Source of the DNA: Cyanomargarita calcarea GSE-NOS-MK-12-04C
GTDB lineage: Bacteria; Cyanobacteriota; Cyanobacteriia; Cyanobacteriales; Nostocaceae
Direction: 5' to 3'
Assembly: GCA_019359595.1 (NCBI GenBank)
Contig: JAHHGZ010000021.1
Coordinates: 1-64,000 of the forward strand
Length of the DNA: 64,000 nt
This document shows, piece after piece, positions 14,848 through 17,783 of the stretch; positions within the stretch are counted from its first letter, which is position 1; each line of letters begins with the position of its first letter. Position numbers and translations under genes: made by a program. The notes under the pieces are model-generated. The model was given only the letters and a program-made list of their open reading frames with translations, was not told where the DNA came from and made no database searches.

Positions 14848-14997
14848 TTGGGGAGGGGTATTTCTGTACCTCACAAAGTTGAAATTTGCTGTAATCCAAG
14901 GTAATCGAGCCAACTTGCTCGTTAGGAATAAAACCGCGCTCGGCTAAAATTTCATCGACTAGATTTGTAACTTTCACGAAGAAAGAAGGAAGAAGTA

Positions 14998-15027
14998 CCC
15001 ACATGAGTACTCATGTGGGATTGAAAC
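14998..15027. repeat. 22-bp perfect palindrome followed by ATTGAAAC
   Basis: CCCACATGAGTACTCATGTG plus GG (14998-15019) is its own reverse complement. The bases ATTGAAAC follow at once, the 3' end common to many cyanobacterial CRISPR repeats. No second copy at spacer distance is present, so this is not an array. Confidence 0.6.
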
Positions 15028-15042
15028 AAAGACACTGTTTTT

Positions 15043-15070
15043 CTTCTCTGCGAGACACTACGTGAACGCG
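15043..15070 (-). repeat. 28-bp dispersed repeat, copy 1
   Basis: On the minus strand this 28-mer (CGCGTTCACGTAGTGTCTCG then CAGAGAAG) matches the plus-strand segment 62919-62946 at 24 of 28 positions. It belongs to a palindrome-like repeat type scattered in Nostocales genomes. Confidence 0.7.
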
Positions 15071-15194
15071 CTACAAAAGACTCGAAAAACATCTTTTTTT
15101 TTACTGAAGCTCTAAACTCATAACGCGCATTTTTATTAGCTATTCCTTCTTCCAACTTCGATCCTTACTTCAACATCATTTGTAATTGTAATAG

Positions 15195-15224
15195 TTTAGT
15201 TTTGTATAGTCAAATATAGTCAGA
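15195..15224. repeat. 10-bp periodic repeats at the tnpB-side end of the IS607-type element
   Basis: TTTAGTTTTG, TATAGTCAAA and TATAGTCAGA follow one another with a period of one DNA helical turn. The two TATAGTCA copies are exact. They are probable transposase-binding sites. Confidence 0.65.
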
Positions 15225-15296
15225 CGTGGTTTTCTATAATAGATAACTGCCACTTCTTCGCAAAACTTTGTAGAAGGATTGAAACTTAATCCTGAC
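15225..15296 (-). ncRNA. Putative TnpB guide RNA (omega RNA) scaffold end
   Basis: TnpB proteins use an RNA whose scaffold comes from the 3' end of tnpB and the element end. On the minus strand, right after the tnpB stop, CTTCT (15272-15276 region) pairs with AGAAG (about 15255) and encloses CAAA/TTTG, forming a hairpin. Placement and hairpin fit an omega RNA end, but no consensus was checked, and the adjacent tnpB is truncated, so function is doubtful. Confidence 0.3.
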
Positions 15297-16229
15297 CTAA
15301 AAGGGAATCACCAATGTGGGTGCATACCCTTCTAAATTTACCTTCCTTGGGGTAACTAACACCTCTCTATCCCCTATCTCGAAAGCGTTGGGGAATGCTT
15401 TGACTAAAATGTTATAACTACCGTTGATATCGGCATTAAGGGAATAACCATTGTTAGTGACATAAAGACCACGTTTTACTCGTCTGCCAGACGGTTCCCA
15501 GTCAGCGGGTTTGGCTTTATAAGTTGGGATGAAATCACTATTCAAAAAACTAGCCTTGCTTGTGTACGACTCCTCTTGAATAATTACTTCAATTCCTTTC
15601 ATAGCACCTTTGTAAGTTAAAATATCAATTAATTGTGCATGAGGTATTTGCACAAAATTCTGATTATTTATGAAGCCTATATTAATGCCGTTCTTCCATC
15701 CCTTATTTTTACCAAGGACTAGTTTACTAATTCCCAATTCATCTAAAAGATTAATTACATAAGTCGATGCTCGGTGTAAATAATCTTTAACTTTATGGTT
15801 CCGGTCTGTCGTCAACTTTTTAAGGCGTTTTGAAGTTGGGAGTCCGCTACGTGTGGAAATTGTTGCGCGTTTTGAATTATAGAATTGGTTGATTGATTTT
15901 AATGGTCTACCATTAATGAGAACTGGTTCAAAACCAGGCACATTTGAAGTTATAGCCATTAAATTGTTAACACCAAAATCTATCGCAGCAATTGAATCAT
16001 TATTTTTCAATGGAACATCTGGAACCTCGTAAATAATTTCTAGAACGTAATGGTCAAGTTTCGGGACAATTCTAGATTGACAGTATTTATTTATGTTGCC
16101 AAGTTTTACACAGGTTTCAAAAGAGTAGCCTAGCCCGCTTAATTTAATTAATTCCTTACCTAACTGTTTTTTAGAAGTAGCTTGTTGGGTAAAAATTAAA
16201 CATATTGTTACATTGCTTAACTTAGGGTT
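15297..16229 (-). pseudogene. TnpB-family RNA-guided nuclease gene, 5'-truncated
   Basis: The RuvC parts are present: AAIDFGVNNL (first Asp), IIQEESYTSKASF (Glu), and NADINGSYNI (last Asp). The GRRVKRGL segment sits where most TnpBs have a four-cysteine zinc ribbon; this clade is one that lacks it. The strong frame runs from TTG at 16010. The same frame stays open to 16229 and adds CQSRIVPKLDHYVLEIIYEV, which matches the segment preceding RuvC in relatives. The first ~100 residues of the family (RNA/DNA-binding N-terminus) are absent, and the open frame has no ATG. The start overlaps the tnpA stop at 16217, where a full tnpB would begin, so an internal deletion is likely. Confidence 0.75.
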
Positions 16230-16816
16230 TCAGATTCTGATTGAAGTGCAGCAATAATTGTCTCGGTTTTGCGCTTTGCTCTGCGTTGCCCATAAAGACG
16301 TGCTGAAAATGACCTTATAATGGCAACCAAGTCCGTCATCAGTTCATCCCGTCCTCTGTCTGCCATATTTACTATTTCAAGTTTGATGCCAAGCCGGGAT
16401 AAAAGAACATCCATGTAATTAGTACCGAACCGGGATAACCTGTCTTTATGTTCCACCACTAGAATATCGTAGTCATCTTGCTTTAAGAGTTTTTCTAGCT
16501 TCTTGCGATGGTCATTTAGTCCACTGCCGACTTCTTTGATTACATGAATGATTTGATAACCTTTGGCTTCAGAATACCTGCACAATCTTTCGGCTTGGGA
16601 ATCTAGATTGTTTCTATTCTTGCGAAGCGAAACACGAGTATAAATTGCAACTTTATTAAAAGTTTTTTGCCCAAACTCATTTTTCGGATCAAAGTCTACA
16701 ATCACCGCGCCGGATGGAAGTTGCCGTGTGGGGTAAGGGATTAATCCATTCTTGTAGTGCTTCCATGCTGTATGGTAGGCAATACCTAGATATTTTGCAT
16801 AATCAGAAAGTTTCAT
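16217..16816 (-). CDS. IS607 family serine recombinase/transposase (TnpA)
   Basis: The 199-residue protein has a MerR-like N-terminal helix-turn-helix (SDYAKYLGIAYHTAWKHYKNG) followed by a small serine-recombinase catalytic domain. The nucleophile is Ser63 in AIYTRVSLRKNRNNLDSQ. The conserved arginines of LVVEHKDRLSRFG are present. The C-terminus is a short basic helix. The order HTH-then-catalytic is diagnostic of IS607. All key residues seem intact, so the transposase may still be active. Three periodic repeats lie just upstream of its ATG and probably serve as both promoter region and binding sites. Confidence 0.93.
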   Translation of the reverse strand: MKLSDYAKYLGIAYHTAWKHYKNGLIPYPTRQLPSGAVIVDFDPKNEFGQKTFNKVAIYTRVSLRKNRNNLDSQAERLCRYSEAKGYQIIHVIKEVGSGLNDHRKKLEKLLKQDDYDILVVEHKDRLSRFGTNYMDVLLSRLGIKLEIVNMADRGRDELMTDLVAIIRSFSARLYGQRRAKRKTETIIAALQSESETLS

Positions 16817-17477
16817 AGACTGGAATAATACACTATACCAGCCTATATTAGCCTATAAACTGAGTGAAGTTTTCCCATACTGATAATTCCTATCTTATTA
16901 CCAGTCGTCATTGTCTTAACTCCCAATCTATGGGATTATTGCAATCCGAAATTATTTTTTAAAAAACCAAATTTGATGACTTTTATAAATCTTTGGTTTT
17001 CTTGCCTGTGTAAGGGGAAATTAAGTCTCAACTCGATCTACAAACTTATTATTCCTTTAATTTACAAAAGCTTATGTTTTACCCATGTAAGATTATAACT
17101 CATTTTTTGAAAAGTGAAAATGTATAAAATTTCCCGCCGAAAAAACCTTGAAATTGCGTTAAATAATTCTCAATAGCTTCGATTATTGAGACAATTGTTG
17201 TAAATCCATGACAAAAAACACTATTTTAGTAAAGTTAAATGAACTTAAATGTATTTGAGTTAAAAAAACTCAGTATTGACAGTGATTTCAATAACTTGGT
17301 AACGTAATTATACTTATTTGAGAATCTAAGATAGGGCAAATTGCTAGTGAGGGGGAAAATTTATCACACATCCTTGCGTTCGCTGCGGATTTCGAGCGTT
17401 TTACATTTCGTTACATAGGTAGGTTTATTTATGCTTATCTACTTACATAGAAATTACTGTTACATTAATTCGTCATA
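16817..17477. other. 660-base gene-free region
   Basis: The left part (to ~16860) is the end of the IS607-type element. The rest is AT-rich with no convincing frame. Immediately before the HicA-like gene I see no HicB-type antitoxin frame. Confidence 0.5.
16830..16859. repeat. 10-bp periodic repeats at the tnpA-side end of the IS607-type element
   Basis: The units ACACTATACC, AGCCTATATT and AGCCTATAAA run in phase, and the two AGCCTATA copies are exact. Together with the array at 15195-15224 they bracket the element. Confidence 0.65.
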
Positions 17478-17783
17478 ATGGTTAGAGAAATAAAGTTTAC
17501 AGAACTAGAGCAATTGCTCTTAGATATAGGGTTTGTAACAATGCCAACCACTGGTTCCCAGAAAGTTTACCAGTATGGATCATCTGGTACATTAATTGTT
17601 TTACCTGATTACGAGCCACAAGCGTATGTAAGAAAAGTGCATTTAGTCGCTGTACGTCGAATATTGTCAGAAAATGGCTTGATAGATAGCGATAGATTCA
17701 ACCGTTTTTTGAACAAGATAGCAAGCCAACTGACGGGTTTTTCGCTCTTTTTTAGTAATTTTGCGATCGCAATTTTCGGTTAA
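17478..17783 (+). CDS. Small HicA-like protein (possible orphan toxin)
   Basis: The 101-residue protein has the alpha-beta-beta-beta layout of HicA mRNA interferases: helix EIKFTELEQLLLDIGFV, then TGSQKVYQYGSSGTLIVLPDYEP, then helix HLVAVRRILSENGLI. In HicA the strand after GS carries a catalytic His; here the place is taken by QKVYQY, so the catalytic residue is not obvious. The last ~25 residues (SLFFSNFAIAIFG) are hydrophobic and may be random extension. No HicB partner is adjacent. It could be a degraded toxin or a conserved protein of other function. Confidence 0.5.
   Translation: MVREIKFTELEQLLLDIGFVTMPTTGSQKVYQYGSSGTLIVLPDYEPQAYVRKVHLVAVRRILSENGLIDSDRFNRFLNKIASQLTGFSLFFSNFAIAIFG

What the first reader, a model, noticed from the sequence alone, without database searches (positions are those of the whole stretch)
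15195..16860. IS607-type element with 10-bp periodic ends and a truncated, zinc-less TnpB
Both ends hold three units with a period of 10 bases (AGCCTATATT type and TATAGTCAAA type), and the two ends are imperfect inverted copies. The transposase is intact, but TnpB has lost ~100 N-terminal residues while keeping all three RuvC acids. The retained RuvC domain may be a relic or may have a new role.
Basis: partly seen in the sequence, partly recalled or inferred. Interest (0 to 1): 0.6.

Follow-up and report, generated by a model that had tools for sequence, protein, structure and literature searches.

The report
IS607 transposon with half-deleted tnpB
This is an ordinary cyanobacterial jumping gene of the IS607 family with an intact transposase and intact ends, whose second gene (the RNA-guided nuclease TnpB) has lost its first quarter to a simple internal deletion and is most likely a dead remnant.

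Summary
The element is real; its exact limits are 15191-16879. Both ends carry three ~10-bp CTAT-type units, more than chance gives, at the same positions in related copies. TnpA (16816-16217) is intact. Compared with intact relatives (Calothrix NIES-4105, 418-aa TnpB; Dulcicalothrix PCC 7102), tnpB has one ~424-bp internal deletion at ~16202 that removes the start codon and residues 1-117 (by alignment to ISDra2, WED strand 1 plus the whole REC domain). No upstream start restores them.

Two points change. 'Zinc-less' is not damage: every full-length relative examined, and three distant paralogues in this genome, also lack the CxxC finger. The canonical RuvC-II glutamate is absent throughout the lineage; the candidate is the 'alternative' Glu (EESYTS) described for Fanzor-related TnpBs. 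Phased end motifs are a published IS607 feature. Sister copies show independent tnpB 5' deletions, and none of 218 family genomes was seen to share this one, so a relic is the best reading. Extras: empty sites show exchange within TAT at GTAT targets (10/10 insertions), not GG, and the right end encodes a covariation-supported omega-RNA-like stem overlapping the 10-bp array.

The parts
15191..16879 (-). IS607-family element, whole; the outermost ATA (15191-15193 and 16877-16879) is the exchange core shared with the host site
   Evidence: Borders from copies at different sites, ungapped empty sites in relatives, coordinates checked
16830..16859 (+). LE array: three units of 10 bp (ACACTATACC, AGCCTATATT, AGCCTATAAA); putative TnpA binding sites
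   Evidence: Shuffle test and conservation in L039, L040, L045, L047; coordinates. TnpA binding is inferred from IS1535 (PMC6188088)
15192..15221 (-). RE array: three units of 10 bp (GACTATATTT, GACTATACAA, AACTAAACTA); putative TnpA binding sites
   Evidence: Shuffle test and conservation; coordinates
16217..16816 (-). tnpA, IS607-type serine transposase, 199 aa, intact
   Evidence: NF033518 164.9 bits, cutoff 110; PF00239; YTRVS motif
16202..16203 (-). deletion junction: about 424 bp lost relative to L045, including the tnpB start and residues 1-117; placed to within a few bases
   Evidence: Alignment to L045, L039 and L038
16011..16202 (-). retained tnpB codons (rest of the WED domain) without an ordinary start codon
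   Evidence: Translation and ORF list, alignment
15297..16010 (-). tnpB remnant, RuvC plus TNB-like region, 237 aa from TTG; zinc-less
   Evidence: PF01385 and PF07282; NF040570 109.5 bits, cutoff 100
15191..15296 (-). right-end region with an omega-RNA-like structure; its outer stem uses the terminal array
   Evidence: Alignment A1 and pair counts

Best explanation
A resident IS607-family insertion sequence. TnpA, a serine transposase with its DNA-binding domain at the N-terminus, would load dimers onto the helically phased CTAT units at both ends, pair the ends, and excise and insert the element by exchange within a TAT core at GTAT targets, leaving no target duplication. In its intact relatives the second gene encodes a zinc-less TnpB, presumably guided by an RNA read from the right end into the flanking DNA. 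Here one internal deletion of about 424 bp took the tnpB start and the whole REC domain, so TnpB is most likely dead, while TnpA and both ends, which are all that movement needs, are kept. Shown: borders, empty-site exchange in relatives, phased units, the deletion, the conserved RNA stem. Inferred: TnpA binding to the units, residual mobility, guide use, loss of TnpB activity.
For: TnpA intact and of the IS607 family. Phased units at both ends above chance and conserved. Empty sites without duplication in three cases. One clean deletion relative to L045 and L039. The lost part equals WED strand 1 plus REC, which read the TAM in ISDra2 (PMC10097598). No ordinary start upstream. No other genome of 218 in the family was seen with this deletion. 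Independent 5' losses of tnpB in PCC 7102 copy 2 and PCC 7716 with both ends kept. TnpA alone suffices for IS607 transposition (PMC6188088).
Against: The retained frame has no stop codon over 301 codons and pairwise dN/dS stays at 0.08-0.13 against L038-L045, though most of that divergence predates the deletion. The right-end RNA stem is kept in this copy. Present mobility of this copy is not shown: there is only one full-length copy in the genome.
Confidence: 0.9

Rival explanations
1. The RuvC-only remnant is made and has a role, for example as an RNA-bound regulator of the element or a competitor of other TnpBs in the genome.
For: Open frame over the RuvC and TNB-like parts, Pfam and NCBIfam matches above cutoff, RNA stem intact in this copy, no sign of excess amino-acid change (10 synonymous to 8 non-synonymous since the C28 split).
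Against: REC and WED strand 1 lost, poor TTG start, one copy in one genome, other copies decay in similar ways, and the three other TnpBs in the genome are only 33-36% identical.
Confidence: 0.05
2. The 10-bp phasing at the right end reflects the structure of the omega-RNA and not transposase binding.
For: The RE units also form one strand of the covarying RNA stem; RE periodicity alone is modest when all periods are allowed (P=0.037).
Against: The LE array lies at the other end, outside the RNA region, with the same period and motif (0 of 3000 shuffles), and both arrays are conserved in relatives. IS1535 has four such motifs bound by TnpA (PMC6188088).
Confidence: 0.05
3. The deletion is an assembly artefact and the true copy is intact.
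For: The genome is a draft of 82 contigs and reads were not seen.
Against: The junction is inside a contig and the copy differs by about 20% from all intact copies found, so a collapse of repeats is unlikely; no fragment carrying the missing part was found in the genome.
Confidence: 0.02

Closest known systems
IS607 family (IS607, IS1535, ISC1926; TnpA model NF033518)
   Same: Serine TnpA upstream of tnpB; short directly repeated motifs near both ends with ~10-bp phasing in IS1535; end motifs in opposite orientation; no target duplication.
   Different: Exchange core TAT at a GTAT target instead of GG; tnpB broken in this copy.
Cyanobacterial relatives: Calothrix sp. NIES-4105 L039, Dulcicalothrix desertica PCC 7102 L045
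   Same: Same ends, same gene order, TnpA 84% identical to L039, tnpB DNA about 80% identical, zinc-less TnpB with the EESYTS glutamate.
   Different: Their TnpB is full length (418 and about 425 aa); the window copy lacks residues 1-117.
Ealt TnpBs and pro-Fanzors (PMC10711439)
   Same: RuvC-II glutamate apparently at the alternative position; cyanobacterial; IS607 TnpA partner.
   Different: RuvC-I is DFG, not DPG, and there is no CxxC finger; placed by motif only.
ISDra2 TnpB (IS200/IS605; PMC10097598)
   Same: Same domain order in the intact relatives; RuvC-I Asp at 190-191.
   Different: ISDra2 has a CCCC zinc finger and canonical Glu 278; the window copy lacks the equivalent of residues 1-117.
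IS607 TnpBs guided by RAGATH-18 RNA (PMC11061315)
   Same: IS607 TnpB with a structured RNA at the right end.
   Different: No Rfam match here; their TAMs are AGGAG or GAGGG, while GTAT is predicted here.

Membership tests
IS607 family insertion sequence | TnpA is an IS607-type serine recombinase | tested here: met
   NF033518 164.9 bits against a cutoff of 110; YTRVS motif
IS607 family insertion sequence | No target site duplication; exchange at a short core | tested here: met
   Three ungapped empty sites for sister copies L041, L044, L040; not available for the window copy itself
IS607 family insertion sequence | GG dinucleotide at the exchange site, as in IS607 and IS1535 | tested here: not met
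   The core lies within TAT. GG is reported for the studied elements and is not used here as an exclusion
IS607 family insertion sequence | Short repeated motifs near both ends | tested here: met
   Three units at each end, period 10
IS607 family insertion sequence | TnpA binds the motifs and pairs the ends | not testable with these tools
   Needs EMSA or footprinting
Active TnpB RNA-guided nuclease | Complete WED and REC domains | tested here: not met
   Residues 1-117 deleted; ISDra2 domain limits from PMC10097598
Active TnpB RNA-guided nuclease | D-E-D RuvC triad | tested here: inconclusive
   Both Asp present; Glu only at the alternative position in EESYTS; activity of that arrangement without a zinc finger not tested
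Active TnpB RNA-guided nuclease | Structured RNA at the right end | tested here: met
   Three helices with covariation; expression not tested
Pro-Fanzor clade | DPG in RuvC-I together with the alternative Glu | tested here: not met
   RuvC-I is DFG; definition from PMC10711439

The most novel reading that the evidence does not exclude
The REC-less, zinc-less RuvC remnant is expressed together with the intact right-end RNA and acts as a minimal RNA-bound regulator or competitor that limits the element's own or other TnpBs, so that tnpB 5' deletions are selected rather than neutral.
Probability: 0.03. Interest if true: 0.65.

Novelty: new member of a known kind. Interest (0 to 1): 0.15.

Why it matters
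On its own little: it is a decayed copy of a known kind of mobile element. The lineage is of modest value. Its intact members are IS607 elements with a zinc-less TnpB, an apparently alternative RuvC-II glutamate, a GTAT target and an RNA stem that shares bases with the transposase array. That gives a testable TAM prediction (GTAT) for a TnpB group that a published pattern search requiring CxxC would have passed over.

Tried and rejected
Rfam search of the region gave only a chance-level CRISPR repeat match at 15270-15285 (E 0.99, 18.9 bits against a gathering score of 45), so no known omega-RNA family. PDB sequence search with the full-length relative gave no hit. No upstream start restores TnpB. 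dN/dS on the retained part is 0.08-0.13 against L038-L045, but most of that divergence predates the deletion; polarised counts against C28 (10 synonymous, 8 non-synonymous) are too few to decide between relic and retained. The 'private changes' count is not used, because L047 is frame-broken and misaligned upstream of its own breakpoint. The idea that contig C50 holds the window's empty site was rejected: it shares both flanks, but the left repeat is inverted there. A 'find' with a two-letter term failed. Paper searches for a zinc-less TnpB description found no paper on this lineage in the held library. Structure prediction was not run, since the sequence alignment already shows which domain is missing.

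Full report
Observation. The element lies on the minus strand between a cbiG-like gene and a prolyl oligopeptidase gene. Copies at different sites in Calothrix sp. NIES-4105 give its borders: the right end (RE) stops at ...AACTAT and the left end (LE) starts after GTAT with (A/G)ATAAAAC or a close variant. In the window this is 15191-16879. Period-10 arrays exist at both ends, exceed dinucleotide shuffles, and recur at the same places in relatives.

Transposase. TnpA has 199 aa, matches NF033518 (IS607 family transposase) well above its cutoff, has the YTRVS serine motif and is 84% identical to the TnpA of L039. The genome has no close second copy of it. A promoter-like match at 16859-16832 overlaps the LE array, 16 bases upstream of the tnpA start. 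The scan found no more such sites than shuffles do, so self-repression by TnpA is only a suggestion.

tnpB. Against L045 the window sequence aligns up to L045 position 2378 and resumes at 2803: one deletion of about 424 bp. In L039 numbering residues 1-117 of 418 are gone. In ISDra2 TnpB, WED is 1-12 and 117-176, REC is 13-116, and these two read the TAM (PMC10097598). By this comparison, which rests on similar length and RuvC-I Asp position (190 against 191), the lost part is WED strand 1 plus all of REC. The frame is open from the junction, but the first ordinary start is TTG 16010, just before the RuvC-I aspartate.

Zinc finger and active site. L039, L045, the Xenococcaceae and Pleurocapsa relatives read, and three full-length paralogues in this genome (33-36% identical) have no CxxC finger between RuvC-II and RuvC-III. 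The zinc-less state therefore belongs to the lineage. At the canonical RuvC-II position the lineage has GKN or GWN, and the conserved Glu is in EESYTS, which fits the alternative-Glu (Ealt) class of PMC10711439. RuvC-I is DFG, so it is not a pro-Fanzor. That paper's pattern search required CxxC motifs, so zinc-less members would not be caught by it. The placement in the Ealt class is by motif, not by a tree or a structure.

Insertion. Joined flanks of L041, L044 and L040 align without a gap at the joint to homologous sites in other genomes. The element therefore exchanges within a TAT that occurs once in the empty site, with no duplication. All ten insertions with a readable left flank are at GTAT. 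The chance of G before TAT ten times is about 8e-8 from the window's own frequency, if the sites are independent. By analogy with IS200/IS605 TnpBs, where the TAM equals the insertion motif, GTAT is the predicted TAM (inference).

RNA. The right-end region of eight copies folds into three nested helices with 97.7% of cells paired, 6 of 17 pairs changed on both sides, and 0 of 500 shuffles reaching the covariation score; slid versions fail. Relatedness of the sequences and a structure derived from the same alignment limit the weight of these controls. The outer helix uses the terminal TATACAAAACT, so the RE array would serve both as DNA motif and as RNA strand. No Rfam family matches.

Relic or new role. 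Among 218 genomes of the family searched, no match ran across the deletion junction outside the window's own genome. A second copy in PCC 7102 joins tnpA codon 186 to tnpB codon 328 with both ends kept. PCC 7716 has a broken tnpA and tnpB codons 221-417 with both ends recognisable. The C28 fragment in this genome keeps only the right end and about 110 codons. NIES-4105 shows the opposite: at least five copies without tnpA but with intact tnpB. Internal deletions that spare the ends are thus common in this family. Selection on the remnant could not be resolved: 10 synonymous to 8 non-synonymous changes since the split from C28.

Known ground. Helically phased motifs bound cooperatively by TnpA are described for IS1535, and repeated end motifs in opposite orientation for IS607 and ISC1926; TnpA alone suffices for movement (PMC6188088). 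The finding is a new copy of a known kind, with a TAT core and a zinc-less, alternative-Glu TnpB as mild lineage features.

Noticed in passing
L039-L045, L047, L103 and window 16877-16880: All ten insertions with a readable left flank are at GTAT, with exchange within TAT instead of the GG of studied IS607 elements; GTAT is a TAM prediction for this TnpB lineage.
   Followed up: partly
window 15191-15275 (-) and alignment A1: The terminal RE array doubles as the 3' strand of a covarying RNA stem, so the same bases seem to serve as transposase motif and omega-RNA scaffold.
   Followed up: partly
L072, L073, L074: Three full-length TnpB paralogues in the same genome, 33-36% identical to L039, are also zinc-less with an EESYTS-like or EEANTS motif.
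   Followed up: partly
window 14978-15186: The left flank is a dispersed repeat (copies on contigs C23, C44, C50 at 97-98%) with a palindrome CCCACATGAGTACTCATGTGGG; in C50 it sits inverted next to a copy of the right flank.
   Followed up: partly
window 15270-15285: GTAGAAGGATTGAAAC resembles the end of cyanobacterial CRISPR repeats, but the Rfam score is at chance level (E 0.99).
   Followed up: partly
window 17478-17783 (+): A 101-aa frame reminiscent of HicA-type small proteins by eye, with no Pfam match; no partner examined.
   Followed up: no
L040-L044 (Calothrix NIES-4105): Near-identical tnpA-less copies with intact tnpB and both ends at different sites, suggesting recent movement in trans.
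   Followed up: partly
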